Made by a program: the position numbers and the translations under genes. From assembly GCF_029633865.1 (NCBI RefSeq), contig NC_079216.1, positions 16,714,505 to 16,778,504 on the forward strand: DNA of 64,000 nucleotides, in the 5' to 3' direction. The notes beneath the pieces were generated by a model that was given only the letters and a program-made list of their open reading frames with translations, searched no databases and was not told the DNA's origin. Positions 3,271-20,044 of this stretch are shown here, piece by piece; position 1 is the first letter of the stretch; each line of letters opens with the position of its first letter. The stretch is from Lampris incognitus. Taxonomy: Eukaryota; Chordata; Actinopteri; Lampriformes; Lampridae.

Positions 3271-5282
3271 TCATGGCTTATGTGTCCAATACCTAAGCAT
3301 CCGAAACAAATCCCTTTCTCCTTTAGAAGGCGAATCTTGTCTCTGTGCTTTTTTACCTTTAAATTGTTGGCATTTCTCTAAATGGTGAGAATGTGAATAG
3401 CTCTGTTTCTTTGTGCTATTTGACATAGTTCTATCCTCAGCAGAATCCACTGGTGTTACTGTAGCAGCAAACCTACTTCCTTTCACTCTGTTCTTTGACT
3501 GTAGCTTAAACTTGTTGGGAGGTTTTAAGACAACTGTCATTTGAGATACATCCTCAATATTTCCAACATTCGGGTTGGAAAGGATTCTCACATGCTTCTC
3601 AAGAAATATAACGACGTCAATGAAATGAGCCCTGTTGTTGGAGGCTTCCATAATGTCATGAGCTTCAGCCCTCCATCGTTCCCTGAGTTTGAATGGCAAT
3701 TTAAAAATGACCATATCCAACTCCTGCACGTAATGAAGCTCTTCCATTGCATTACAACATCCACGCAAGAATAAAGCATAGGCTTGTAGGGCTTTGGCAT
3801 CCTCACACTTTATTGTTGGCCAAGCTAAAGCCTTTTCTATGTATGCAGTAGCAATCTTGTACTCGTTTCCAAAATGTTCTTGCAGAAGACCCTTCGCCAC
3901 AATGTAGTCATGTTCAGGAGCCATGCACTGGCAGCTAAGAACCAATTCCTTTGGCTGTCCTCTGGTGAACGGTCCGAAGTAGTACAAGCAGTCAGCTCCA
4001 CTAGCGTTGTCCTCCACTCCTTGTTCAAATGCTTTAATGAAAGCTTTATATTGAAACAGATCTCCTTCAAATATAGGAATGTCATGTGTTGGCAGAGACA
4101 GTAAGCGCGCTGGTGAAAAAGGGCAGCTGTTATCTCATTTCGCTTGTACATGATAATGACAACATCTCCAGATGGAATTTGATAATTTTGTTGATGATTT
4201 ATGTTGCCTATTACTTTGATTTGCCCAAGCAGTTGTTGCAAAACTTGTGATGTTTCCCCAATGGTGTTGATCATGTGTATCAACCTCTCGCTTTGATGCA
4301 CTTGAAACCTGCCTTTCAGTTTGCTTTGGTTTGATGTCCATTGCTGTCAGTTTGTTCTGTGGCAATGACCACTCCCTTTGCTGTGGTTTCCATGCTGCAG
4401 GCTCATATTCCTTTGCCATAGGGTCAAGAGTGTTGAATGGTGCCAGTCCCCTCTTTTCCTTTTCAAAATAAGAGTTCAGGCCGTTTGTCGCTGCATGAGA
4501 GGAACATTGTCCATCTGAAGCCCACAAAACTGCCAACTTAGCAGTAGATGCAGCCATCTCAGTTTCCAAATCGAGCTGTTCTTTCCTCCTCCTTATCTGT
4601 TGTTCCTGTTCCTCCAACACATGCCGTTTCTTTAAAGCTGCCACACGAGCAACAAGTGCACCTCTTTCTGCCGCTGCTTTAATTTGTGCAGAAGAAGTGG
4701 TACTTGACTTATTACTGGTGTCACTTTTGTTTGAATGTTTAACCATATTGGAAACACTGTCATTGGGATTAATATCATCATAATTACCACCATCGATATT
4801 AAAATCACCAGTACCTTCATTTTCAGACACATGCTATTCAATGCTTAACACCAACTCTTGTGTATTGGCAATACATTTATCATTGAACATAATTTTTGCC
4901 TTAAACCATGTTTCATGTCTTTCTTTTTCCTCATGTGGCAATAAACCCATTATGGAATCATGCATACACCTTATTTCATCACACAATTCAATGTAACCAT
5001 CAAAGAGCATTTTGTATCTATGGATTTTTACCATTTTGCGTTAAACCTTGTATCATTTTTTCTTAAATTGCTAGCCTTATTTAGCTTAGCTTTTCTACCA
5101 CTTTGCCATCTGTCCAACCTATCAGACAGTGCTTTTGCAGAAAGTTTGACCACCCGCTCGCTCGTTTGTGTTTCACTACAGCTGGCCACACTGTCCTGTT
5201 TGCCAGCAGTAGGCACACTCGCACCTGACCGTATGTCCATGTCCGCAACGGACTCTTCCATATTTAAAAGTCTGACAGCCAA
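3271..5282 (-). pseudogene. BEL/Pao gag polyprotein remnant
   Basis: The capsid-precursor part of the element is split over frames 5282-5028, 5034-4834, 4830-4135, 4301-3837 and 4017-3271. The segment beginning near 4830 has an acidic, Ser/Asn-rich start followed by a Lys/Glu/Arg-rich helix (LEEQEQQIRRRKEQLDLE) of the coiled-coil type seen in BEL gag. The 4017-3271 segment has a Trp/Arg-rich capsid-like helical region followed by a basic, Ser-rich tail leading into the zinc knuckle. At least four frame changes are needed to join these, so no protein can be made. The assignment rests on domain order and on the protease and pol pieces downstream. Confidence 0.7.
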
Positions 5283-5289
5283 CAGACTG

Positions 5290-5464
5290 CAAACAAATCA
5301 ATTGATACGAAGTTTATTGTTCATCCTCTTCAGCAACCAATGCATTGGAATTACGTCCTTATGTGTGCACACAAACTTAGATGGCCATCTTAACGGTGGT
5401 AGCACTACACATACCTCCTTAAGATGAATGCTGCTCCATGACTCAAGTGGCGAGAAGCTCCACA
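5290..5464 (-). repeat. Candidate 5' LTR or leader of the BEL/Pao element
   Basis: On the minus strand this stretch starts with TGTGGAGC exactly where the tandem-repeat arm stops, contains an AATAAA polyadenylation signal (plus-strand TTTATT near 5312) and lies just upstream of the first gag frame. It is short for an LTR, and no partner copy was found at the other end, so the call is tentative. Confidence 0.4.
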
Positions 5465-5875
5465 TCGAGGTAAAGTTGTTTTCATATTGGACATTCAAAA
5501 GACATTCATATTCGGCATTTTGTGCCTTAGTTAGGGACCGAGGTAAAAGTACAATCATAATCAGGAAATGAATCAATAACTTTGCCAATATTTGACATAG
5601 ACACCTCAAAACAATTGCAGATTATTCTAGTAATATATATCCATCTATGACAGCTTTTAGTTTTCATTGATTAGCAATTCTTTAAAATTCAAGCAATCAA
5701 TAAAAAATACATTTAAATGCATTTAGATCAATAACTTTGCCAATATTTGCCATAGACACCTCAAAGCAATTGTAGATTATTCTAGTAATATATATATACC
5801 CATCTATGACAGCTTTTGGTTTTCATTGATTATTATTAACAATTTTTTTAAATTCAAGAAATCAATAAAAAATAC
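5465..5875 (+). repeat. Left inverted arm made of two ~155-bp tandem units
   Basis: The block ATCAATAACTTTGCCAATAT recurs at 5572 and 5727 (period 155), each time followed by the same CACCTCAAA, TTATTCTAGTAATATATA, TCTATGACAGCTTTT and CATTGATTA blocks. The reverse complement of the whole arm, including the outer GAGGTAAAG and GCATTTTGTGCCTTAG segments, is found at 19131-19771. It may be a terminal inverted repeat of the MULE-type element between them. The outer end was cut or moved by the BEL element. Confidence 0.75.
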
Positions 5876-6153
5876 ATGTGGCATAGAAAGATGTGGAGGA
5901 GCAGGATGTGGCAGAGGAGGGTGTGGCCAAGAAGGATGACCATTCTATACTAGATGAGAAAAATACATAAAACAAACAAACAAGACCAGTACCCAAGACA
6001 TTCCACATTCAAATAAAAAGAAAGAAATGGGAAAATATTATGCCACTGCCTGGCACCTACCAGCTCTGAAAACCTTGGACTGACATATTTTATAAGTCAT
6101 TCTGGAAGATTAGTCCTTGCTGCACCCTAATATTCCAATATCAACATGTTACG

Positions 6154-7990
6154 GTGAAGCGGAGCCGAAAGAAGCAGTGTCCCTACCTCACAGTGAAGGT
6201 GGTTTGTTCTTTCAAGTCATGTAAAGCACGCTACATCTTTAACATAAAAAAACACAAAAAAACAGCCAAAAGGTGTGAGATGGTTCAAATAGATGTTGGC
6301 TGTGTAACACATGAGAAAGGGGAAGTAAGGTCACACCTTGCCACCTACCTAAAGAGGGGCAAAATAGCCAAAGCCCTTCACAAAGGTGTCAGCAACACAT
6401 ACTATTCTAAACTTAGTAAGACACCAGTGGATGAGTTGCTGGCAGACAACAAGGCAAGAAACATCTCAAAGAATGTGCTTAAAGTTATCAGCTCGGAAGT
6501 CCATTGTAGCATACATCTACACAATGACATAATTTTGGAATTAGTCCTTGCACAAAGGATCCAACGAGTCAGACAACCACATGTTCTGTCCTGGATACAT
6601 CCAGCACCTTCAGGTAGATCCCTTTGCTGTACATCTCTACACAGGTTGCAGCTTTGGGCTTGCCATCCACCACTTATGGACCAGAAAACCAGTCACCATG
6701 TTCCTAGATGTTACTGGAGGGATAGTCAGCAAAATACCCAACCAAGACAAAAGGGTATTTTATTACTGCCTTACCCTGCCTGGAGAAGGAAGAGACAGGC
6801 CCCCTCTGCCCATGACAGAAATGATCACCAATGATCATGCGATCCCAAACCTTTCATTTTGGTTGATGCAGACCATCATGAAAATATCTAAATTGACAGT
6901 CAGAAGGGTCCACCAGGTAGAAGTCGACTACAGTTGGGCCTTAATTCAAAGTGCCCTTCTGGCCTTTAATACGGAAAACATTGTCTACATCGAGAAGGCA
7001 CACCTCATGATCCATGGCAGACTCACCAGGAGGAAAATGAGGAAGCGTACCGTTCTCCACCTCTGCTCTGCCCACGTGGTAAAGGCTGCGTCTGAGGCTT
7101 TCAGCCGGAAGACCACAGACACGGCGCTGAGTGAGTTTGCCACTTACTGCTTTGCACAGCTGTTGAACAGCACAAACCTGTTGGCTGCTTTGACAGTCGT
7201 TCACCACATCTCTGTGGTGTTTATGGCAAAAGACTCCTCAGAGGTGGTGAAAAAGAGTGTCAGTGTCCTACAAGGGCTCATAGCCAAAACGGGCATACTG
7301 CATGTCGACTCTGGCGCTACCGCCAAGCCTCTTCTCGAACGGACTGATCCTCCTGCAGATACCATCTTTGCAATGTCACCTTTCACATTGGAGTTCCAGG
7401 GAGTGTTTGAGACTGCTTGTGGTGAAATCCAGATGGAGAGTAACCAACAAGCATGTCCAAACCAGTACCACTGTCCTGAGCTTTTAGATGTGCTCTTCAA
7501 GGACTACCTGGGAATCTTCTCACTGTGGAGTGGTATTCTCCTGGGTGACCTTTGCCGTTATGCTTTGGAGGGAGGACAGGAAGACACAAAGGAGAAGACA
7601 ACTAGGCAAACTAACACCGATGTGGAGCAGTGGTTCGGCATCCTGAAGAACTCCATTCTGAATATAGAAAAAGCTCTTCGCCCTGCAGCCTTTATCAATG
7701 GGCAGTATGCCTCCCTACAAGGACGGTATAGGGAGCACATCATCAATAATGGAATGCCTATGGAATTGCTTGAGAGGCCAATTCGGTTAACAAGGCATGT
7801 TAACGAGTGCACCATCTACAACTCCAAGGAACAGTGGGCCAAAAGATCAGAGACCACCAACAAAACAAAAAAAATCTAAGTATTTTGACCCCCTCCGAAA
7901 TGCCATCACTAAAGCGTCCAAAAACAGGGAAGAAAACCGGGATGACTGTGACCAAGAACTGCTCCACAAGCACCTTGAATGCTCCTGTGA
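6154..7990 (+). pseudogene. Mutator-like (MULE) DDE transposase with N-terminal zinc module
   Basis: This would be the DNA-cutting and strand-joining enzyme of the transposon. The first frame (6154-~6560) holds a zinc-binding region of GCM/WRKY/FLYWCH type: CPYLTVKVVCSFKSCKARY followed by THEKGEVRSH. A one-base shift near 6548 then moves to the frame ending at 7879. This carries the first catalytic Asp in MFLDVTGGIVSKIP, the second acidic block QVEVDYSWALIQSALLAF, the Cys/His pair of MULE enzymes in LCSAHVVKA, and the candidate third acidic residue in TDVEQWFGILKNSIL. A second one-base shift in an A-run near 7865-7875 leads into SKYFDPLRNAITK and ends at a splice donor after CSCEG. Assignment to MULE rather than hAT or KDZ rests on the D, CxxH and E spacing and on the N-terminal zinc module, and has not been tested by search. 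Confidence 0.7.
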
Positions 7991-8007
7991 AGGTATCATT
8001 AACTACT

Positions 8008-8030
8008 ACTACTACTACTACTACTACAGT
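8008..8030 (+). repeat. (TAC)n microsatellite
   Basis: Eight TAC units just inside the first intron of the MULE gene. The run of Tyr in the overlapping open frame is due to this repeat and is not protein. Confidence 0.95.
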
Positions 8031-9555
8031 ACTATTATAATATATATCACACTGAACATAGTCTCTTTTAGTAATACCTTATCCATGATTTCATAACATT
8101 TTGTTCTTTACATGCATTTCAGGTTCCCCAGCAAAGACCTCAAAAGACCAGCAAAACTGATCAAAATCGGACGACATACATGTAAAAGCCTCTAACAAAG
8201 ACCACAAGATGGCGCTAACAGAACACAAACCACGGTACACAAGCCACTATCTGTACTACTTCTACTGTGATTGATAACGCAACATAAAATAATTTGATGA
8301 CAATTACAATTCTCCATTGAGGTTTGAAATCATAATATATACACACAACAAAACACAAACTCATGCTCTACACAAAGCAGGTATGACAAATACGTATATT
8401 TAGTGTTATGTTGTCTATAGGTGCGAAATGGTATGCATCAACTTTAACTCCAACTAATGTGTTTCAGATCAAGTCTCTCTGGGGGAAGAAAGACAGAGGT
8501 GTGGTGGTTGCTGTCATCTGGTCCAAAGAAAACAAAAATGTGTCCTATACCCTTCACCACGAAGGGTTCCTGACACTGAAGCCTCACCACTGGCTGGCAG
8601 GGAAGGTAACCAAGACTAACTTCATTTTAAAATTATGGCCATTCTAGTTTAACATCATACAGGATAGAGTTAAAAGAACAATTGATCATTTGAAATTTCA
8701 AAACAGTTATTGCTAAACATTTTCTTTTTCAGGTAATGGAATCATATCCCCAGGTGCTGCTCAATGGAAGTGGTCATGGCAAAATAATCTTTTAGCTTAA
8801 CCACTGCAGCGGTAGTGTTATCATTCACGGGCCCAGAGATAATATGAGTCATCATAGTCTACGGAAGGTATTGTATCTGGTCAACAACAAAATTTCTCAT
8901 TTCTCTCATGTGGCAAAGACCCTCATCCACTAATTTATTTTCCCTTCACCTGCTGTGTTCCATCTCTTACTCAAAAGACAGGAAACACATCAGCTCTATC
9001 CCATGTGCATGTATCAACACCCCTCAAAGCCTTTTGCATTCTATCTGAAATAAAAAAGAAAAAGAAAAAACCCACAGACATCCAAACACATATTTTCATA
9101 TATTGGTCTTCCCTGTTCCTTATCTCCCCTCTTACCTATTTAGATTCCTAGCCCTTGTGACTTGCCTTCACCACAACCTTTTCCTACGTATTATTTTGTA
9201 TTGATGGTTTTTGTCTTAGCTTTTAGTTAATGCTGGCCACATTCTTCTGAAAAGCCCTATCTATATGGAATACTAAGTATCTTCCATTTCAGGTTACATT
9301 CAGTGACTACAATGCAGTGATAGGATTCGTTAATATCCAGAACCTGCACTGGATGATACTGCTGAGATCATCTTTCCCAGTCACTTCACCACACACACAC
9401 TTACTCATGTAATTGTGCTTTTGTGTTAAATTAAGTGTGTGGTGAAACAGGGTTATGATTTCTCACAGTACTTTCAAGCTGCATCAGTGAATGTTTTCCT
9501 TGTGGCTCCATCTGGAGGACAGGAGCAGAGGGCATCTGATAATGCTGCCTCAAGA

Positions 9556-12445
9556 TTGTGGTTGCTCGCACCGAGACCTGGCCATCACCACTGACAACAC
9601 CGTGGTGACGCCAACTCGGACTGTGAGGAATCTGGGTGTGATCCTGGACGGCCAAATGTCGTTTGCTGAAAACGTTGCATCGGTTGCTTGCTCCTACAGA
9701 TTTCTCCTCTATAACAACAGGAGGATTCGCCCATTCCTCACCGACGAGATGGCACAGGTGCTCATCCAGGCTCTGGTCATCTCCCGGCTGGACTACGGCA
9801 ACTCCCTCCTTGCTGGCGCCCCGGCGTCAGCCATCAGACCTCTGGAGCTTGTTCAGAAAGTTGCAACTCGTCTGGTGTTCAACCACCCTAAGTTCTCCCA
9901 CACAACTCCCCTTCTCATGTCCCTACACTGGCTCCCAGTAGCTGCTCGCATCCAGTTTAAGACTCTGGTGCTAGACTACAGGACAGTGAAAGGAACAGCT
10001 CCTTCCTATCTCCAGGCCATGGTCAAGCCCTACACCCCCGCCCGACCACTTCACTCTGCTGCCTCGGGACGCCTGGTTGCCCCGTCGCTCAGAGGTCCCT
10101 GCTGCCGATCGACCCGGTCACGGCTCTTTTCTGTACTGGCCCCACAGTGGTGGAATGAACTCCCCACTGATGTCAAGACAGTGGAGTCGCTGCCCATCTT
10201 TCGGCACAGGTTGAAAACTCACCTCTTTAAGAACTACTACCCTGTTACTGGTTCTTAGCACTTATTGTATTCACTCATTAAAAAAAAACTCTTTCTTGCA
10301 ATTTTACTTTAGCACTGGTTTTGCTCTTAGATGCTTGTTTAGATGCACTTATGTCCTCTGATGACTGGTAGTTCTCCTGATTTCCTATGTTAGCTCATCA
10401 TCCGTGCATCTCGATGGGTGGTGGGGGGCGAAAGGTCCAGGAATGGCCTGCGTCTTCCACCAATCCGGGCGTACATGGATGACTTGACCACCATAGCAAC
10501 AACAAAACCATGCACCAGACGCCTGCTGCAGAAACTCCAGGAGAACATCAAGTGGGCACGAATGGAGTTTAAACCAAGTAAATCTCGCAGCATCTCCATT
10601 GTCAAAGGCCAACTAGCAGATGAATGGTTCTGCATTAGTGATCAACCAATCCCCACAGTCCGGGAGAAGCCCATCAAGAGCCTCGGACGGTGGTACAATG
10701 CAGACCTCAAAGACACCCAGCAACTGGAGCAACTTCGCCAGGATACAATCAGTGGCCTCAGGCAAATCAACAACACTGCACTGCCCGGGAAGTTAAAGCT
10801 TTGGTGCTTTCAGTTTGGGCTGCTACCCCAACTCATGTGGCCAATAACCATGTATGAAGTCTCACTATCTCATGCCAATCGCTTGGAGAGGCTAGTGAAC
10901 TCGCAGGTGAGGAAGTGGCTTGGACTGCCAAGGTGCCTCAGCAGTGTTGGACTCTACGGCAATGGAGCCCTCGCACTGCCAATTTCCAGCCTGGTTGAGG
11001 AATTCAAATGTGCCAAAGTGAGGCTGGACATGTCCCTCACAGAATCCCGAGACCCAGTAGTGAGAGGAGTTGCTCCAACCCTAGCAACAGGGAAGAAATT
11101 GACCCCGGCTGCAGCTGTACTGGAGGCGAAATCTGCCCTCCGCCACCGAGACGTAGTAGGCCATGTTCAACAAGGCAGAGGTGACCTTGGCCTGGGAACA
11201 AAAACACCTACCTGGCAAAAGGCGACTACTACCGAACGGCGAACTATGGTGGTTGAGGAGGTCCGCCGACAGGAAGAAGCAGCCAGATGTGCTAAAGCCG
11301 TAGCACAAGCCAAACAGGGTCGCTGGATGAGGTGGGAGGGTGTTGAAAAGAGGAAACTCACATGGAGTGAGCTCTGGAGCATGGAATCAAACAGGCTGAG
11401 TTTCATCATCAAGGCCACATATGATGTCCTGCCCTCTCCCATAAATCTAAATCTCTGGCTTGGAGAGAATCCATCTTGCTCCCTGTGAACAGCCCCAGCA
11501 ACCCTCAAGCATATCTTGGTTGGCTGCAAGACCAGCCTTACCCAAGGCAGATACACCTGGCGACATAATCAGGTGCTTGGCAGCTGAACTCGATTGCAAG
11601 AGGGTTTCCATCAATGCCCAACCCTTCAACAACCAGGAAGAGCGCCGGCGGTTTCCAGCTTTCATTCGAGAGGGGGATAAACTGAAGGCCAACCCTTCAC
11701 TTCCCAACTTAGGCTCACTAAACTCAGCCAGGGATTGGGAAATGCGAGTGGACTTAGGCCAGAAGCTCATCTTCCCGACAGAGATCACAACAACCACCTT
11801 GCGACCAGACCTCGTCCTCTGGTCCAATTCTAACCAGCTCGCTTACATCATTGAGCTCACAGTCCCCTGGGAGGATGCAGTCGATGAAGCGTAGGAGCGT
11901 AAAAAGCTGCGGTACGCCAACCTAGCAGCCGAAGCAGAGGACAGAAGCTGGAAGGTGAAGGTGCGCCCTGTGGAGGTGGGTTGTAGGGGCTTTGTTGCCA
12001 GCTCCACAGCAAAACTCCTGAGGGAACTAGGAGTCAGGGGGCAGGCCCACAGGAGAGTGATCAAAGAGCTAGCCAACACTGCTGAGAGGACTAGCCACTG
12101 GATCTGGCTCAAAAGGAGAGACGCCGTCTGGGCTGCCAGGGTGAACAGCTAACCACAGGTCACGCACCCAGGACCGATCGACCTGTGGTGGGCCTGCCTC
12201 AGCGGAGGGTGTCTTGTGATAAAAGGCCGAAACACCCTGTGATGCTGAGGTACACAACTGATGATGTGTCCTGGTGGTGGCAATGTCACCTTGGCAGACA
12301 TCTCCAGTTTGATCTCCACTGAATCTGTTGCAGTGCAAACACTAGGGATTTTAACAACCAGTCCTTTTTTGAATCTTGTTAAATGCGCTTATTGTAAGTC
12401 GCTTTGGATAAAAGCGTCGGCTAAATGACTGTAATGTAATGTACA
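9556..12445 (+). mobile_element. Second L2-type LINE copy, 5'-truncated, inserted in the MULE protease and interrupted
   Basis: From about 9556 the sequence matches the 3' half of the LINE at 1250-2165: LAITTDNTVVTPTRTVRNLG through WWNELPTDVKT to KNYYPVTGS, ending at a TAG at 10258. The 3' UTR is cut at 10392 by another LINE and resumes at 12377 with GTTAAATGCGCTTATTGTAA, ending in TGTAATGTAATGTA near 12445. The frame is open from 9491 only because it fuses by chance to the protease exon. The copy lacks the palm motifs, so it was dead on arrival. Confidence 0.88.
10393..12381 (+). mobile_element. Non-LTR retrotransposon with restriction-like endonuclease, nested in the L2-type LINE
   Basis: The insert is bounded by TGTTA at 10388-10392 and 12377-12381, a likely target-site duplication. 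Frame 10418-11488 begins inside the RT palm (RAYMDDLTTIATT, with the DD pair) and continues through a thumb/linker. A zinc-knuckle block then starts Cys-Ser-Leu, but its second Cys codon is TGA (11486-11488); in the same frame KHILVGCKTS supplies the His and last Cys. After a frame change near 11580 the frame ending at 11894 carries RPDLVLW and IIELTVPWED, the PD-(D/E)xK core of a restriction-like endonuclease. A stop at 11892 interrupts the C-terminal helix. RT, CCHC, then RLE is the order of R2/NeSL/Hero-type elements; the clade is not decided. Confidence 0.82.
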
Positions 12446-13000
12446 TTTGCATAATTTGCATGTATTATTTATGCATCAATAAGCTTGTTTTTATTTTGAA
12501 TTGATGGCTAAATCCTTCATGTAGGGACCAATACAAATTTGTTCCCCATACAGTGAGTACTTCAAAATGCGCTTCAACAGGCATAGGAAGACTGACTGAG
12601 TGGGGCTGAACTGGAAAGGAGCAACCATCAACCACACCCAACAACAGGATGGATTCAGCTGTGAGGTGTCTGTTATGGAGGTGAACAAAACATGATGTTT
12701 GCATATCCTCTACTCTTTGTCACATTTGATAACCAATTTTGACATTGTGTAGTCGGAAAGTCATACAAAACATTTAAATTCATTGTTAATATCTAGATGG
12801 CAAGACACATCATTGACAACCTACAGAACATCCCATCACATCTGACCTTAGACCCCTCCAAGAAGGCCATGTTGCTGAAGAGAGGAGAGTTTGCTGAGAA
12901 GATTTTGGATGCATCAGGTGTGCACAAAGAAATGAACAGGAACACAATGTATTAATGCTATTACCCAGAGTGTGAGATTTTATAGTAGGTTTTCTTACAG

Positions 13001-14236
13001 TCTTCAGAGTCGACAACTGCTGCTTCATGTGTGGATCCCATTCTATACCCAGAGGATCTGCACTTGTGACTAATTGGGTTCATACTTTTGTTTCACTTAA
13101 AATTCTGTACGGTTTATTATTCTCTATGACACGTTATATATCGCTGTTTGGTAGATAACACAGTGACACTGCACTTGCAGTATTTTTTTTTTTTTGGTCA
13201 TTTCACAGCTGCTTTTATCCAAACCCTCACGCTCTGCCATGATAAAAAAGAGCTGTTTTTTTTTCCTTGGAAAGCCTGTCTGCTGTTATAGCACATGCTT
13301 GTTTTAACAGGCTCGAATGTCAACTTCATAGTGCTCGGTTCTCAAGTTAATCACGCCACAGACACACAGACTGACACAGACTTAAGTTCTGCCTTTATTG
13401 TTAGATGTTTATTTGTAGACTATAAATTAGATTAAATTCACTTTGAGTGCAACATAATTCAAAGAAAAAAAGAATGGTTGTAATGTTTTAAGGCTCATTA
13501 GTTAATAATAGGAAGTGATCCACATTTTCATGAATTAACATTATTTGATTAGCAGCTCAAGTTGGTTCCTTTACAACTGGCACTTGTTGGGGTGAGAATC
13601 AATTATCTGGGAGAAGCACACAGATTACCTTTCTACAGTACCAGTTTTTCTCAGCAACCTCTGAGGAGGGGTAAAAAACATCCCCATGTGGCGAGTAGAT
13701 CAAGCCTCCAGGAAGTTTGTCATGACAGCCTCAGCTCATGTAGAATGCCTGAACACACCTGGTGTAGAACATCTCAGTCTGAAACCCTATTCAGAGGCTT
13801 ACTGCAGCACAACCACAGTAACAGCTAGTACAGATACAATTTGGTCATTTAGCAGGTGCTTTTATCCAAAGCGACAGTATGATGAGATAGTGTTGGGGTT
13901 ATGTGCTCAAGGGCACTATTGTAAGGAAATGTTATGGCAATGATCATCAAGTGTCCTGGCCCTTTCAGTCACTGGTCAGGTGATCTAACCACTGGGCTAC
14001 CTACCGTCCAGTATTCAATCTTTATGATGGGTTTCACTAATGATAGTGATGTGTAATCATACAGTAGTTTGAATCTAGTATCAAGTGCTACTTTCATTAA
14101 TATTTTTCCGATTTAAATCCGGCAGATTGCTTGCTCTGTGTGCATGAAGTGGTTCCACTCGGAGTGTCTCAGTATGACGCAGAGGGAATTCAATATTCAG
14201 CAAGGCCAAGAGTGGAAGTGCCGTCTCTGCAGTTAA
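13001..14236 (+). pseudogene. PHD finger encoded by the last two exons of the MULE gene
   Basis: An exon starting at 13001 after TTTCTTACAG reads FRVDNCCFMCG, giving the first CxxC pair. The exon 14126-14236 after a CAG acceptor reads IACSVCMKWFHSEC, then WKCRLCS and a TAA. Together they give a Cys4-His-Cys3 pattern: CxxC, CxxC, x4-His, xxC, CxxC, with the aromatic residue before the last pair. PHD fingers usually read histone H3 tails, so in a transposon this could steer integration or chromatin binding; that role is inference. The 1 kb intron between the two halves contains other repeats, and the donor of the first half is uncertain (a GT follows ...GSAL near 13066). Confidence 0.7.
13180..14020 (+). 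repeat. Short repeat fragments with the fish TTTTATCCAAAGCGAC motif
   Basis: 13838-14010 reads like a dispersed fish element: GGTCATTTAGCAGGTGC, TTTTATCCAAAGCGACAGTA, CTCAAGGGCACTATTG, ATCTAACCACTGGGCTACC. A weaker partial match lies near 13198-13225. They sit in the intron between the PHD halves. No coding capacity is seen. Confidence 0.5.
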
Positions 14237-14239
14237 CAA

Positions 14240-15340
14240 GGGTAAACTCAGGTAGGAATACAATGTATATCATTAAGCCCCTTGACACAAGGAAAAACAA
14301 CTTCCTCTCACTGACAAAACTGTAAGACATGGCCTTCCCAAATAAGACTCTAACACAAACATTTTATCAACAGGCGGCATTGGAATGTTTCCCGAGCCCT
14401 ACTACAGCCTTGTGTTGTGGAATGGAGCCTGTCACTTTTGCCAAGTGTAATGTTTATTTGTTTTTTGATTTTGTACATATTTCCGGTTACATGTGTAGCA
14501 TGGTGTTACTTTTTGTAAATGAACCCCCTTTTGTTATACATTTTTCTCATCTGCCTCCTACTTCATCACCTCTGTGGTCTGGCTTTCTGACAAGAAGTTA
14601 AATAAAATGTCAGGAGATATATTTCCACAAAAGGTCTGAATAGGTCTGCTACTGAAAGAATATGGACTACTTGCAATTCACATTCATACCTTGTATTTAG
14701 GGGCCAGGCAGCTCAGCTGCTGGTCCTGCTTGTTATTGCCAATATTCTGCTTCTGAATCTTCTTCTTGGAAATTTGCCTTCCCATTCATGAAAAATCACC
14801 AATTTTGCACATAGCTCCAGGCTCAGCAGGCATTGTGGGCCAGTAGTCCTGATGGTGGCACTACGGTAACTATCTCAAGTTTAAAACTTTGGCTGTGTGC
14901 GCTATCACTTTGCAACCACCACCAAAATGTAGGCCCAAGTGAGTGGAAATGTTCATATGCTTTGAGCTGGCAGGAATTATGAAGTCCATCCCTGTTTTTC
15001 TCAAAAACTGTAAAACCTATCAAACCCATCTCCTCCCACATTTTTTTGGTCAATTCACACCACATTTGCTATACTGCATCTCCAGAGACTGTCCTCCTCA
15101 AACTCTCCTTCCAGGATTTTTGAAATATCAAAAATGGAGCCCACAGTGCATCAAAAATGTTTTACTGTAAACAGTGCTGTATGCAGCTACTGTAAATTCT
15201 TGCTCAGTAAATCTCCAATGTTTACGTTTCATGACATGGTAAGTGCAGCATGCCATTTTTCAGAATTTTATCTCAAAAACGTAATTCTGTCCTTACGTAA
15301 ACGATTGCTTTAGATGCAAAAGAAATACACTACCCACAAC
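14240..15340. other. Non-coding stretch, probable ancient repeat
   Basis: Downstream of the PHD exon I find no splice-supported coding exon. 14820-15180 has the look of a dispersed non-coding repeat (GAGTGGAAATGTTCATATGC, TTCTCAAAAACTGTAAAACC, ATTCACACCACATTTGC), but I cannot assign it to a family. Confidence 0.4.
14601..14606 (+). promoter_or_regulatory. Candidate polyadenylation signal of the MULE gene
   Basis: A canonical AATAAA lies 365 bases after the stop codon of the PHD exon, in the same orientation. It is the first such hexamer downstream of the stop that I noticed. Confidence 0.4.
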
Positions 15341-15354
15341 CCTATAAAATCAGA

Positions 15355-15960
15355 ATGGGTTTTTATTGCCAGGTAAGTTTACACATACAAGGAATTTGTT
15401 TTGACAGTGGTGCATAACACTAAAATAGACAACAGTAGACAAGGTGCAAGGGGGCAAGACAGGGCAGTGCAAAAAGGCAGGACAGTGCAAAAACCTCAAA
15501 GAGCAAATTATGCAATGTAGGCCTATGTACAATATGTGCAGGGTGATGTCTGCAATGTAGTCCTATATGCTATACTGTACAATCAAGTGTCATGTAAAGT
15601 GCAGTGGTGCTGCAGGGCCAAGGTCAGAGTTTGCCGTCGGGAAGAAGAAGCTGTTTTTGTGGTGAGAGGTTTTGGTCCTGAGGGGAGTGGCTGAAAGAGT
15701 TTGTGACTGGGGTGGCAGGGCCCTGGAGGCGTACAGGTCCTGAAGGGATGGCAGGTTGCAGCCGATCACCCTCTGAGCAGAGCGGGTGACAGGCTGCACC
15801 CTGGCCTTGTCATTGGCTGTGGCAGGGGCATACCAGATGGTGTTGGAGGAGGTGAGGATGGACTCAATGATGGAGGTGTAGAAGTGCACCATCATTGTCT
15901 TTGGCAGGTTGAACCTCTTCAGCTGTCTCAGGAAGTACATCTTCTGCTGTGCCTTCTTGG
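15355..15960 (-). mobile_element. LINE 3' end, RT C-terminus
   Basis: On the minus strand 15940-15590 reads MYFLRQLKRFNLPKTMMVHF, IIESILTSSNTIWYA and SAQRVIGCNLPSLQDLYASR, the C-terminal thumb/connection region found in many fish LINE ORF2s. It continues to RTKTSHHKNSFFF and a Cys-poor 3' UTR with GCACTG and TTTTTGCACTGTCCTGCC repeats down to about 15355. The catalytic domain is absent, so this is a 5'-truncated copy. Confidence 0.8.
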
Positions 15961-16190
15961 TGAGGGATGTAACAGTGAGCGAATTTGTGTATTTGTGGTC
16001 TTCCCTGTCCCCTGGGTTGCCACAACATGCAAACCTGGTGATTGCCTAAGTCATACTGTGAAGCCATCTCGGGGGTGAGGGATGTAACAGTGAGCGAGTG
16101 TGTGTATTTGTGGTCTTCCCTGTCCCCTGGGTTGCCACAACATGCAAACCTGGTGATTGCCTAAGTAATACTGTGAAGCCATCTCGGGCT
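15961..16190 (+). repeat. Tandem duplication, two copies of 115 bp
   Basis: The block starting TGAGGGATGTAACAGTGAGC occurs at 15961 and again at 16076, and the two 115-bp copies are nearly identical to the end (AAGCCATCTCGGG). The first copy begins inside the RT fragment boundary, so the duplication happened after, or together with, insertion of that LINE. Confidence 0.9.
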
Positions 16191-16269
16191 TTTCACTTGG
16201 CAGGTTGCTCAACAAGATCATGAATTGCCCTTGGTGTCTAAGATTGTGAGTTCAAACCTTGAGTGATGC

Positions 16270-19130
16270 AGAACAAACATGCGAATGCCTACTCAGGCAT
16301 TGTGCTGTGGATTCAAGATATATATGAAGCAGGCAGTGTCCAAACACTCTGCCAGCTCTAAACTGGCCACTGGTGGCATTCCCCCTGGTGCTGTGTCCCC
16401 CACACTGGCTGGGAGCCCCCATCCACTGGTGTATGATGGTCAGGTGCGCTCTTCTACTGCACCCATTCCACAGCCACCTTCTGTTCTGATTGTGGGTGAT
16501 TCTATTATCAGGGACGTCAGGTCGAACACAGCTGTAACACACTGCTTTCCAGGTGCCAAGGTAAATGACATTCTGGTAGAGCTTCCTAGTCTGCTATCCC
16601 AATATACCTCTGTTGAGAACGTTGTCATTCACATTGGCACAAATGATATTCCATGGCAGCAGTCAGAGCTTTGAAAATCGGATTTCATCCATCTTTTTAA
16701 CCTTTTAAAACTTAGTATGAAGGAAGTTTTTATCTCTGGCCCACTTCCTACTTTTGGTCGTGGCATTGGTGGTTTTAGCAGACTTTTGCAGCTTCACGCC
16801 TGGCTTCAGTCACAGTGCTCTCTTTTACGATTTGGTTTTATTGACAATTTTAATCCTTTCTGGGAGAGCTCTTCTATTTTTAAACGTGATGGACTCCATC
16901 CAAATCGAGCTGGCTCACGAAGGCTGGCTGAAAACGTGTTTTATTCCATCGTCTCCAACTCTCATGTTTGTGCTATCGACAATAACGTTTGGGGTCTGCA
17001 CCTGTGTGAGGACAGTTCTGTCACTAACTGACATCCACAGGAGCAGAGTGGTTTCAATTTTGGTTCCGTTGTAAACCATACTTATTCAGGTCCTTTGGTC
17101 ATACCAATGACCGTCACCCTGCCATACTAATTCCTGTAATAATAAACCATAGACACAGACCCCGTAATCTTCCTGTAACATACAGGGAGCTAAACAATTT
17201 GTTGCCAGTTCGGACTTCAATTATCAGTCCCCCACAAAGCCATGCACCTCAGACAATAAAAATGGCTTTATTAAACGTCAGGTTACTAACTAACAAGCCA
17301 TTTTTAGTTAATGATCTCATAAGTACCTATAACCTGGAGTTCACCCTACTGACCGAGACTTGGCTGGATAGAAATGGCGCAGTCACGCTTATTGAGACTG
17401 CACCTCCTGGCTTCAAATTTATCCATACCACCAGATCTGATAAGAAAGGCAGTGGAATAGCTGCTGTCTTCTCTGATTCCTATAGCTGCAAGGAAATCCC
17501 CCTCGGGAAATTCATGTCTTTTGAATACCTTGCTTTTACTATACATTGTAATGCTACGATTTTAATAATTACTGTCTATTGGCCACCAAAATCCAAACAT
17601 GGCTTTCTTGATGAATTTTCAGGAACTACTGTCTATGGTTTCCACTGATTATGATTGTTTCATCATCCTGGGTGATTTTAATGTTCATGTTGACAATCAA
17701 ACAGACCCCAATGCTAGAAACCCAATTAATTAGCTTACTGGAGGCATTTGCTCTCACTCAGCATGTTTCTGGACCCACCCACAATAAGGGGCATACTCTA
17801 GACTAGACTTAGTCATATCAAAAGGACTTAATATTACTGTATCATGTGTCATGGATGTTGCTATCTCTGATCACTGTTGTATATTTTTTGATGTGTCTGC
17901 TCTTCCTATACAACAGAAGAGCACTCGAATGATCAAAAAAGGCTTCATTGATAATAATACAATTGAAACCTTTCAGAAAACTGTAAATGAGTTGTCGCCG
18001 TTCATGCCATCACAAGCTGAGGATCTTATAAACAACTTCAACTCAAAAATACAAAATATCTTTGACAACATTGCACCTGTTAAAACTAAAAACATGGAAA
18101 AACAAAAAGCCCCCTGGAGAGATGGAGTGGTTGTTAGGCAGCTTAAGTGAGAGTGTCGCCAGGCAGAATGACAGTGGAGAAATACTAAACTTTAGGTTCA
18201 CCATGAAATTTACAAGGATAGACTGAATACAGCAAAGAAATTAAACAGGCCAGACAGTCTTTTTTCTCTGAAATCATTAATGAAAATATTAACAATAGTA
18301 AAGTGCTTTTCTCTACTATTGAGCGACTTATTAATCCACCATCTCCAAACCCATCAGAGATACTGTCCACTGAAAAATGTGTGCAATTCACTACTTTCTT
18401 CAATAACAAAATTACTGCCATTAGACAGAACACTAGTGCCTCAAGATCCAGTAATGAACCTACCCTCCAGTTCTCCAGAAATATCACTGGCGCCATGTCT
18501 CACTTTGACACTCTAGACCTTCTAAGTCTAGACAATATTGTTAAGCAGCTCAGGTCGTCCACCTGCTGCTTGGATCCTCTCCCCACCAGATCTTTTAAAA
18601 ATGTTTTTAATTGCATAGCACATGACGTTTTAGAAATTATTAACTACTCTCTTCAGGCAGGTATATTTCCTGCAGCACTTAAGACAGCTGTCGTTAAACC
18701 ACTTCTGAAGAAGAGTAATCTTGATGCGACAGTTATTGCCAACTACAGGCCCATCTCCAACTTACCATTCCTCAGCAAAATCCTTGAAAAAACAGTTTAT
18801 TCTCAAGTTAATAACTATTTAATATCTAACAACCTTCTAGGCATTTATCAATCAGGTTTTCGATCTCACCATAGTACAGAAACAACACTTACCAAAGTTG
18901 TGAACGATCTGCGTATGAACACAGACTCTAATAAATTGTCTGTTCTTGTGCTCCTGGATCTCAGTGCTGCTTTCGACACTGTTGATCATGATATTTTGCT
19001 AGAGAGATTAGAAAAATGGGTTGGCCTTTCTGGCCCAGTTCTCAACTGGTTTAGAAAATACCTTTAGGACAGGCAGTTCTTTGTGTCTATTGGAGACTTT
19101 TCCTCGGACAAAGTGGGTATAATGTGTGGG
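16270..19130 (+). mobile_element. CR1/L2-type LINE with esterase-like ORF1, 3' truncated
   Basis: ORF1 remnants at 16279-16674 and 16717-17031 encode an SGNH/GDSL-esterase-like domain: [12 protein letters not shown] carries the Gly-Asp-Ser nucleophile block, VVIHIGTNDI the GxND block, and DGLHPNRAG the Asp-x-x-His block. ORF2 starts near 17262 with an AP endonuclease region (MALLNVRLLTNK, LLTETWLD, then LGDFNVHVD in another frame near 17670). It continues with RT fingers (NYRPISNLPFLSKILEK), QSGFRSHHSTET and the catalytic VLLDLSAAFDTVDHDIL. The sequence stops at 19130, just before the PQGS and YADD boxes, where the inverted arm begins. Several frameshifts are present. Its 3' end was removed by a rearrangement rather than by normal insertion, since LINEs lose 5' ends. 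Confidence 0.85.
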
Positions 19131-19771
19131 CTAAACACGTTTAAATTTATTGATTGCTTGAATTTAACAAAATCGCTAATCAATGAAAACCAAAAGCTGT
19201 CATAGACGGATATATATATTACTAGAATAATCTACAATTGTGTCAAATACTGGCAAAGTTGTTGATCTAACCACATTTAACTGTATTTCTTTATTGATTT
19301 CTTGAATTTTACAAAATTGCTAATCAATAATCAATGAAAACCAAAAGCTGTCATAGATGGGGTCAGACCCGTTAGCTAGGGACTAACGTGTCTTATTAGT
19401 AGTTTACACTACAATTGGTTTGAGGTGTCTATGTCAAATATTGGCAAAAGTTATTGACCTAAACACATTTAAAGGTATTGTGAAAGTGTGAACCTACGGT
19501 CTTCCCCGTTCCTTCGGCTCTACAGTATTATTGATTTCTTGAATTTTTAAAAATTGCTTATCAATAATCAATGAAACCAAAAGCTGTCATAGATGGATAT
19601 ATATTACTAGAATAATCTACAACTGGTTTGAGGTGTCTATGTCAAATATTTGTAAAGTTATTGATTTATTTCCTGATTATGATTGTACTTTTACCTCGGT
19701 CCCTAACTAAGGCACAAAATGCCGAATGTGAACGTCTGTTGACTGTCCAATATGAAAACCACTTTACCTCG
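19131..19771 (-). repeat. Right inverted arm, three tandem units
   Basis: This is the reverse complement of the arm at 5465-5875. Unit starts marked by ATTGATTKCTTGAATTT lie near 19145, 19294 and 19529; the larger last spacing is due to a 46-bp SINE-2 scrap (19367-19412) and an extra GTGAACCTACGGTC segment. The outer end ACTTTACCTCG at 19761-19771 mirrors CGAGGTAAAGT at 5466. The chance frame at 19628-19834 is the counterpart of a minus frame at 5609-5298, and neither is a gene. Confidence 0.75.
19367..19412 (-). repeat. SINE-2 fragment inside the right arm
   Basis: GGTCAGACCCGTTAGC followed by ACTAACGTGTCTTATT matches the end of the tRNA-type repeats at 20045-20205 and 41556-41715. The fragment interrupts the second tandem unit of the arm. 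Confidence 0.6.
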
Positions 19772-20044
19772 GTAAGCTGCTCCACAGCGTCCTTCACAAC
19801 GTTCCCCGCTCACGGTGTGCCGAGCAGCAGATGAGCAGACGAGACGCAGCTGTCGAAGCGCTCCGAACACCCAGCCCCCCGTCCGGCTCCCTCGTCGCCG
19901 CCGTCATCAAACATGCAGAAACTCGTCTCCAAACTCCCAACGAAGTAGAGGCTAAGCCGACGTTATAAGCCACTGAGGTGTTGCACAACAGATGGCGTAA
20001 TTGACGCACTAATTGCTGAGTCTGATGAATCAAAGTCCGAGACA

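What the first reader, a model, noticed from the sequence alone, without database searches (positions are those of the whole stretch)
6130..14606. MULE transposon gene that fuses a DDE transposase, an Ulp1/C48 protease and a PHD finger
Separate exons with AG/GT borders spell, in one direction, a GCM/WRKY-like zinc module, a DDE transposase with a CxxH insert, a C48 protease with HW ... QxxxxxC, and a Cys4-His-Cys3 PHD finger, then a stop and AATAAA. Ulp1-bearing MULEs are described in plants (Kaonashi type); I do not know of an animal MULE with Ulp1 and PHD in one intron-containing gene. If supported, the element may couple transposition to SUMO removal and histone reading.
Basis: partly seen in the sequence, partly recalled or inferred. 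Interest (0 to 1): 0.9.

Follow-up and report, generated by a model that had tools for sequence, protein, structure and literature searches.

The report
Fish Mutator-type jumping gene, broken copy
This stretch of a fish genome holds a dead copy of a Mutator-type jumping gene whose enzyme was fused to a SUMO-type protease and a PHD (often histone-reading) finger; whole-looking relatives with the same order occur in other fishes, which bears on the open question whether such elements exist in vertebrates.

Summary
Exons at 5.9-14.2 kb spell a DDE transposase (D6707, D6926, CxxH, E7625), an Ulp1/C48 protease and a PHD finger, in one direction. The copy is dead: stops, frame changes, Ala at the protease's Asp position, and a LINE insertion in the protease part. 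The order is not private: annotated proteins of Gymnodraco and Misgurnus, and one 1139-aa frame from an unnamed source, carry transposase-Ulp1-PHD; 5 of 13 other loci read in the same genome keep transposase then Ulp1. A relative's transposase model is closest to ISCth4 (IS256 family, bacterial kin of Mutator). So this is a MULE in the wide sense, 14.3 kb with insertions; Rehavkus, a MULE kin with a PHD finger, may be its nearest named group and could not be compared. Ulp1 in hydra and lancelet Mutator and Ulp1+PHD in a hydra Ginger1 are in print; a vertebrate MULE with both was not found in my searches. What Ulp1 and PHD do in transposition is inferred.

The parts
5455..5463 (.). left target site duplication AAGCTCCAC
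   Evidence: the right copy carries a 3-bp indel
5464..5877 (+). left terminal inverted repeat, with a repeated subunit of about 155 bases
   Evidence: blastn against 19282-19771 minus, 378/490 identities with gaps counted; related ends on C25. Tandem Repeats Finder lists no array over the subunits
5891..6567 (+). acidic stretch and N-terminal zinc-like module (Cx4C...H), one frame, stop at 6067; left border approximate
   Evidence: tblastn of P0001, P0030, P0007 from 5974 on; translation
6575..7876 (+). DDE transposase core: D 6707, D 6926, C 7064 and H 7073 (CxxH), E 7625 (first base of each codon)
   Evidence: fold of relative P0007
7872..7992 (+). end of transposase exon in another frame, up to a GT at 7993
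   Evidence: by eye against P0001
8468..8605 (+). Ulp1 exon, N-terminal lobe
   Evidence: tblastn of P0030 and P0034
8733..8867 (+). Ulp1 exon, stop at 8793
   Evidence: tblastn of P0030
9293..9355 (+). Ulp1 exon with catalytic His-Trp (His codon 9347); 3' end approximate
   Evidence: tblastn of P0030
9469..9540 (+). Ulp1 exon; Ala codon 9505 at the catalytic Asp position; 3' end approximate
   Evidence: translation aligned by eye to P0030
9541..12434 (+). nested LINE material (weak RVT_1 fragment, UnaL2 3' end at 12381-12434); left limit approximate
12554..12680 (+). Ulp1 exon with Gln (12642) and catalytic Cys (12660); stop at 12597
   Evidence: tblastn of P0030 and P0034
12797..12917 (+). 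end of Ulp1 domain and linker, tentative
   Evidence: frame resembles P0030 about residues 1062-1098 by eye only
13001..13065 (+). first PHD exon, ligands Cys 13021 and Cys 13030; 3' border approximate
   Evidence: by comparison with P0030
14126..14236 (+). second PHD exon (Cx2C, HxxC, Cx2C) and stop codon 14234-14236
   Evidence: PF00628 32.2 bits, E 1.1e-7
14601..14606 (+). AATAAA
   Evidence: sequence
15590..19100 (.). further nested retroelement-like sequence inside the element; limits approximate
   Evidence: RVT_1 E 1.2e-13 at 18222-19064; frames
19282..19773 (-). right terminal inverted repeat (a further related subunit reaches inward to about 19147)
19774..19785 (.). right target site duplication AAGCTGCTCCAC, 3-bp indel against the left copy
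   Evidence: 33 of 200,000 random window pairs meet the same loose criterion

Best explanation
The locus is a dead copy of an intron-bearing autonomous Mutator-like element of fishes (MULE in the wide sense that includes its kin Rehavkus). It has long inverted ends with repeated subunits and made a 9-bp target duplication. Its gene encoded a transposase chain ending in a SUMO-type protease and a PHD finger. Most likely the N-terminal zinc-like part binds the repeated subunits of the ends, the DDE core cuts and joins, the Ulp1 domain removes SUMO (from the transposase itself or from silencing or repair proteins around it), and the PHD finger tethers the complex to histone H3 tails. Shown here: domain order, catalytic residues in relatives, folds by prediction, ends and duplication. 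Inferred: end binding, SUMO as substrate, histone reading. The confidence given is for what it is; for the proposed use of Ulp1 and PHD it is about 0.35.
Against: None of 26 family proteins scanned against Pfam, nor the window's own frame, reached PF10551 (MULE) or PF00872 at E <= 1, and the window is not among the 127 PF10551 matches listed for its own genome (150 of 227 candidates scored). hhalign probability is moderate, and against a shallower MULE alignment 22.7, 20.9 and 0.6; 1 of 100 column-shuffled controls scored higher (137.8) over 14 columns at an edge, the other 99 at most 23.0 against 51.6. The helix with the last acidic residue has low model confidence (pLDDT about 48-64), and the ISCth4 match has a high rmsd. 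The right duplication needs a 3-bp indel. No whole copy with its DNA could be read, so ends and a whole gene were never seen together. No SUMO or histone data.
Confidence: 0.85

Rival explanations
1. The Ulp1 and PHD exons belong to a neighbouring host gene (a SENP-like gene) and gene predictors fused them with a transposon by error.
For: P0030 and P0034 come from genome annotation; P0031 holds the end of the transposase, Ulp1 and PHD but not the core. In the own genome 4 of 13 loci show only Ulp1 (2 of them with PHD) pieces (L048, L049, L053, L054).
Against: P0046 is one uninterrupted 1139-aa frame on a 4120-base contig with the same order; P0041, P0042 and P0029 join transposase and C48 likewise. 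5 of 13 own-genome loci keep transposase then Ulp1 on one strand. The inverted ends enclose both parts in the window.
Confidence: 0.04
2. It belongs to the Rehavkus lineage, a kin or outgroup of MULEs that carries a PHD finger, rather than to MULEs proper. It would work in the same way.
For: Rehavkus: 9-bp TSD, TIRs of 26-400 bp, PHD finger, minisatellite near the 3' end (PMC6446971, Table 1 passage and section 8). Here: 9-bp TSD, TIRs of about 0.4-0.5 kb with repeated subunits, PHD finger.
Against: Rehavkus is reported only from insects and annelids there; Ulp1 is not mentioned for it; the PHD is said to lie in the transposase domain, here it follows Ulp1 at the C-terminus. No Rehavkus sequence was on hand, so nothing was compared.
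Confidence: 0.3
3. The element belongs to another superfamily with the CxxH insert (hAT, P, Kolobok or Dada) and only resembles a MULE.
Against: The 9-bp duplication (Kolobok makes TTAA, same passage) and ends of about 0.4-0.5 kb fit MULEs: Aedes MULEs have 8-9 bp TSDs and 12 of 14 families have TIRs over 100 bp (PMC5225508, passages; the subterminal tandem repeats there are only 9-15 bp). hhalign to MULE proteins is in register.
Confidence: 0.08
4. It is a domesticated fish gene family rather than a transposon.
For: Introns that look conserved in position between the window and L048 (before EYFKMR, and inside the PHD); long conserved chains in several fishes.
Against: Broken or fragmentary copies at 13 further loci read, two divergent copies in one species (Culter P0001 and P0015; tree), inverted ends with target duplication and a short derivative element.
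Confidence: 0.04

Closest known systems
Mutator elements of hydra and lancelet with Ulp1 (Repbase reports cited in PMC2836005)
   Same: animal Mutator-type transposon encoding an Ulp1 domain
   Different: I saw only the citing passages and the legend of Figure 1e, not the sequences; PHD in the same protein is not stated for them in what I saw; these hosts are not vertebrates
Rehavkus (PMC6446971, Table 1 passage and section 8)
   Same: MULE-like, 9-bp TSD, TIRs up to 400 bp, PHD finger
   Different: reported from arthropods and annelids, Ulp1 not mentioned, PHD placed in the transposase domain; sequences not compared
Ginger1-9_HM (hydra Ginger1; PMC2836005, Table 1 passage)
   Same: transposase with C-terminal Ulp1 and PHD, introns
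   Different: core of the Gypsy-integrase type (paper); the core here resembles IS256/MULE with a CxxH insert
Kaonashi MULEs (KI-MULE, Arabidopsis)
   Same: MULE carrying an ULP protease
   Different: non-TIR MULE with the ULP in reverse orientation (PMC2528002, passage); here same strand, same chain, long TIRs
Muta/Phantom MULEs (PMC5225508, PMC6446971)
   Same: long TIRs, 8-10 bp TSD, DDE, short derivatives
   Different: 'Ulp1' does not occur in the main text of PMC5225508, nor in that of PMC13359780 on arthropod MULEs; different transposase sequence
IS256 family, ISCth4
   Same: best structural match of the catalytic part, CxxH
   Different: bacterial; 31-bp TIRs and 8-bp TSD; no protease or PHD (recalled)

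Membership tests
MULE superfamily | RNase H-type DDE core with alpha-helical insert and CxxH | tested here: met
   D 17/18, D 18/18, C 18/18, H 17/18, E 18/18 rows; model m251589b37a72 best to ISCth4; its last-acid helix is of low confidence
MULE superfamily | terminal inverted repeats, often long | tested here: met
   5464-5877 and 19282-19773; related ends on C25
MULE superfamily | 8-11 bp target site duplication | tested here: met
   C25 element: TATCTACAT on both sides, exact (11 bp if the outermost A/T of the ends are counted); window: AAGCTCCAC against AAGCTGCTCCAC, 33 of 200,000 random pairs as good
MULE superfamily | sequence kinship with known MULE transposases | tested here: inconclusive
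   hhalign E 2.9e-5, prob 73.6, motifs in register (controls 77, 78); shallower alignments 22.7, 20.9, 0.6; no Pfam MULE hit at E <= 1
MULE superfamily | N-terminal WRKY/GCM/FLYWCH-type zinc domain | tested here: inconclusive
   Cx4C...H and four strands at 109-166 in the model but no such Pfam hit; the fold lists barely test this part
Rehavkus | 9-bp TSD, long TIRs, PHD finger | tested here: met
   features from PMC6446971
Rehavkus | Rehavkus transposase sequence; minisatellite before the 3' TIR | not tested
   no reference sequence on hand; subunits inside the TIRs are not shown to be that minisatellite
Ulp1/Peptidase_C48 | fold and His-Asp-Gln-Cys | tested here: met
PHD finger | Cys4-His-Cys3 and Pfam PF00628 | tested here: met
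   window exon 14126-14232 32.2 bits over cut-off 24; eight ligands; P0030 36.1 bits
Kaonashi MULE | ULP in opposite orientation, no TIRs | tested here: not met
   same strand, TIRs present; definition from PMC2528002
Ginger1 | Gypsy-integrase-type core | tested here: inconclusive
KDZ/Zisupton | its own transposase signature | not tested
   no reference sequence on hand

The most novel reading that the evidence does not exclude
An old lineage of animal MULEs fused its transposase to a SUMO protease before the fish and arthropod-like elements parted, and the PHD finger is equally old in part of it. The element would carry its own chromatin kit: it strips SUMO marks that help silence transposons and docks on H3 tails, so that it acts in, or opens, chosen chromatin. 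That would make a self-contained anti-silencing transposase in vertebrates.
Probability: 0.25. Interest if true: 0.8.

Novelty: new variant of a known kind. Interest (0 to 1): 0.6.

Why it matters
[quoted passage not shown] Here a fish element shows ends, a 9-bp duplication and an IS256-like DDE core, and whole-looking proteins sit in other fish genomes, so the question becomes directly testable. The fused SUMO-type protease and PHD finger offer a tractable test of whether transposons carry their own tools against chromatin silencing.

Tried and rejected
Direct Pfam and NCBIfam scans for a MULE or zinc-finger hit gave nothing usable. Two scans of viral contigs, with A1 and A2, found no relative. 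An inverted-repeat search restricted to 5000-15500 found no convincing ends (25 of 45 pairs shown), because the right end lies at 19.3-19.8 kb; a genome search with 5450-5990 showed it. Inverted repeats in four other loci (L043, L044, L046, L050) gave no credible ends: the pairs L046 I2 and L050 I2 lie in repeats shared with many of the other loci; the L043 pair and L050 I1 were not followed up. L041 and L042 are 99.5% identical over 9.9 kb and count as one locus. I considered a host SENP gene, hAT/P/Kolobok membership, Rehavkus and domestication (see rivals). A second locus with both TIR and gene is suggested on C17 (coding match 22490155-22490382 +, TIR pieces 22495289-22495804 -), but the piece of its end that I read (L061) lacks the outer terminus, so I do not count it. 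The tree leaves WINDOW at an unresolved fork; long branches (P0047, P0048) make deep placement unsure.
Full report
What is there. The window lies in a 1.48-Gb genome; the homologues that bear an organism name are fish, but for one ant, and I take the genome to be a fish's (inference). Searching proteins with the open frame 6545-7876 gave 29 matches at E <= 0.001, best Culter alburnus (48% identity), among them the ant protein, named as an Ulp protease. Searching with residues 430-696 of the Epinephelus match gave 12. Mapping five relatives back on the window shows parts of the chain in order on the + strand, from 5974 to 12689; a further Ulp1 exon (9469-9540) and the PHD exons were placed by eye and, for the second PHD exon, by Pfam.

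The copy is dead. In-frame stops lie at 6067, 8793 and 12597; the frame changes near 6567-6575 and 7870; the catalytic Asp position of the protease reads Ala (9505); LINE sequence with an UnaL2 3' end lies between about 9541 and 12434, and more retroelement sequence lies at about 15.6-19.1 kb. The DDE triad, the CxxH, the His, Gln and Cys of the protease and the eight zinc ligands of the PHD finger are still readable.

The fusion is real and shared. P0030 (Gymnodraco, 1158 aa), P0034 (Misgurnus, 995 aa) and P0046 (unnamed source, 1139 aa in one frame on a 4120-base contig) have transposase, Ulp1 and PHD in this order. For P0034 and P0046 the PHD score is below Pfam's cut-off (16.5 and 17.0 against 24). 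P0041, P0042 and the ant protein P0029 end with C48 and show no PHD hit; P0043 aligns there with its Ulp1 residues but has no Pfam hit. P0048 has the same transposase with a different C-terminus. In the own genome I read 13 distinct further loci (16 stretches fetched: one is the window's flank, and two pairs count as one locus each). Of these, 5 keep transposase then Ulp1 on one strand (L039/L040, L041=L042, L046, L047, and L051 weakly, Ulp1 part E 0.004), 4 show N-terminal or transposase parts only (L043, L044, L045, L050) and 4 Ulp1 parts only (L048, L049, L053, L054), two of them with PHD pieces, in L048 on the opposite strand. None shows all parts; stretches were 10 kb, so parts beyond were not seen.

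Ends and duplication. A genome search with 5450-5990 matched the window itself in reverse at 19282-19771, two facing arms on C25 about 90 bases apart, and pieces on C17. Aligned, the window arms are 378/490 identical with gaps counted, contain repeated subunits (Tandem Repeats Finder does not list them), and share the outer sequence ACCGAGGTAAAG with C25, with one change in the left window arm and one in the right C25 arm. The C25 element is flanked by TATCTACAT on both sides, exact. The window copy is flanked by AAGCTCCAC and AAGCTGCTCCAC, i.e. nine bases with a 3-bp indel; 33 of 200,000 random pairs of window positions meet this loose rule, 8 of 200,000 an exact 9-mer. Long TIRs, 8-10 bp TSDs and short derivatives are MULE features (PMC5225508, passages). 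So the element is 5464-19773, 14.3 kb with its insertions.

What is known. Ulp1 in Mutator elements of hydra and lancelet, and Ulp1 with PHD in Ginger1-9_HM, are in PMC2836005 (passages). KI-MULEs of Arabidopsis carry ULP in reverse orientation (PMC2528002, passages). PMC6446971 (passages; section 8) judged the vertebrate MULE sequences it examined misidentified and left the question open; it also describes Rehavkus, a MULE kin of insects and annelids with 9-bp TSDs, TIRs of 26-400 bp and a PHD finger, which may be the nearest named group and could not be compared here. Against an absence in vertebrates, Repbase lists MuDR (Ricksha) in human (PMC5753468, passages) and another paper counts 437 human MULE-MuDR fragments (PMC9004415, passage). 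PMC13359780 (2026, arthropod MULEs; term counts and passages) has neither Ulp1 nor PHD in its main text. I found no paper on a vertebrate MULE with Ulp1 and PHD in searches of an open-licence library; Repbase, Dfam and subscription papers were not searched, so such an element may already sit there.

How it works. Shown: order, residues, folds by prediction, ends, duplication. From general knowledge (recalled): DDE enzymes of this fold cut and join transposon ends; SENP-like proteases cleave SUMO; PHD fingers often bind H3 tails. Inferred: that the N-terminal module binds the TIR subunits, that the protease acts on SUMO near the transposition complex, and that the finger tethers it to chromatin. 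The tree (22 rows chosen from 48 proteins and the window, rooted at the midpoint) puts P0046 and the arthropod-like rows on one side and all named fish rows (with P0048) on the other, and Ulp1 occurs on both sides, so the fusion is probably older than that split, unless Ulp1 was captured twice.

Noticed in passing
own genome, e.g. L010:1192-2388 minus: 127 matches to Pfam MULE (PF10551) in this genome (150 of 227 candidates scored), many in a repeated 399-aa frame; the one scanned also has a FLYWCH finger: a second, canonical MULE family in a vertebrate, unlike the one in the window.
   Followed up: partly
G000:C25:8519513-8520423 (L059, L060): A short element that seems to consist almost only of two facing arms of the same terminal repeat, flanked by an exact 9-bp direct repeat (11 with outer bases): a non-autonomous derivative. 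Only its outer ends were read.
   Followed up: partly
P0048 (846 aa, unnamed source): Same transposase but a different C-terminal region instead of Ulp1/PHD (LPDGTYYMSNTCPVDNLLMF...), with no Pfam match at E <= 1; perhaps another swapped C-terminal module.
   Followed up: no
window 3274-4134 minus: Retroelement-like frame with a weak DUF1759 match (E 1.9e-4, 21.9 bits, below the cut-off 25.4), outside the element's left end; BEL/Pao-like by recall.
   Followed up: no
window 15593-16045 minus: Frame matching Pfam ALKBH8_N (E 3.9e-15) inside retroelement-like sequence; the Pfam name probably reflects a retrotransposon-derived segment (inference).
   Followed up: no
G000:C17:22490155-22495804: Coding match to P0030 residues 177-252 (+) and pieces of the same terminal repeat in minus orientation about 5 kb downstream: maybe a second copy of the window's own family.
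   Followed up: partly
window 5876-5938: Tandem array of a 15-base unit, 4.2 copies, coding the acidic stretch just inside the left terminal repeat.
   Followed up: no
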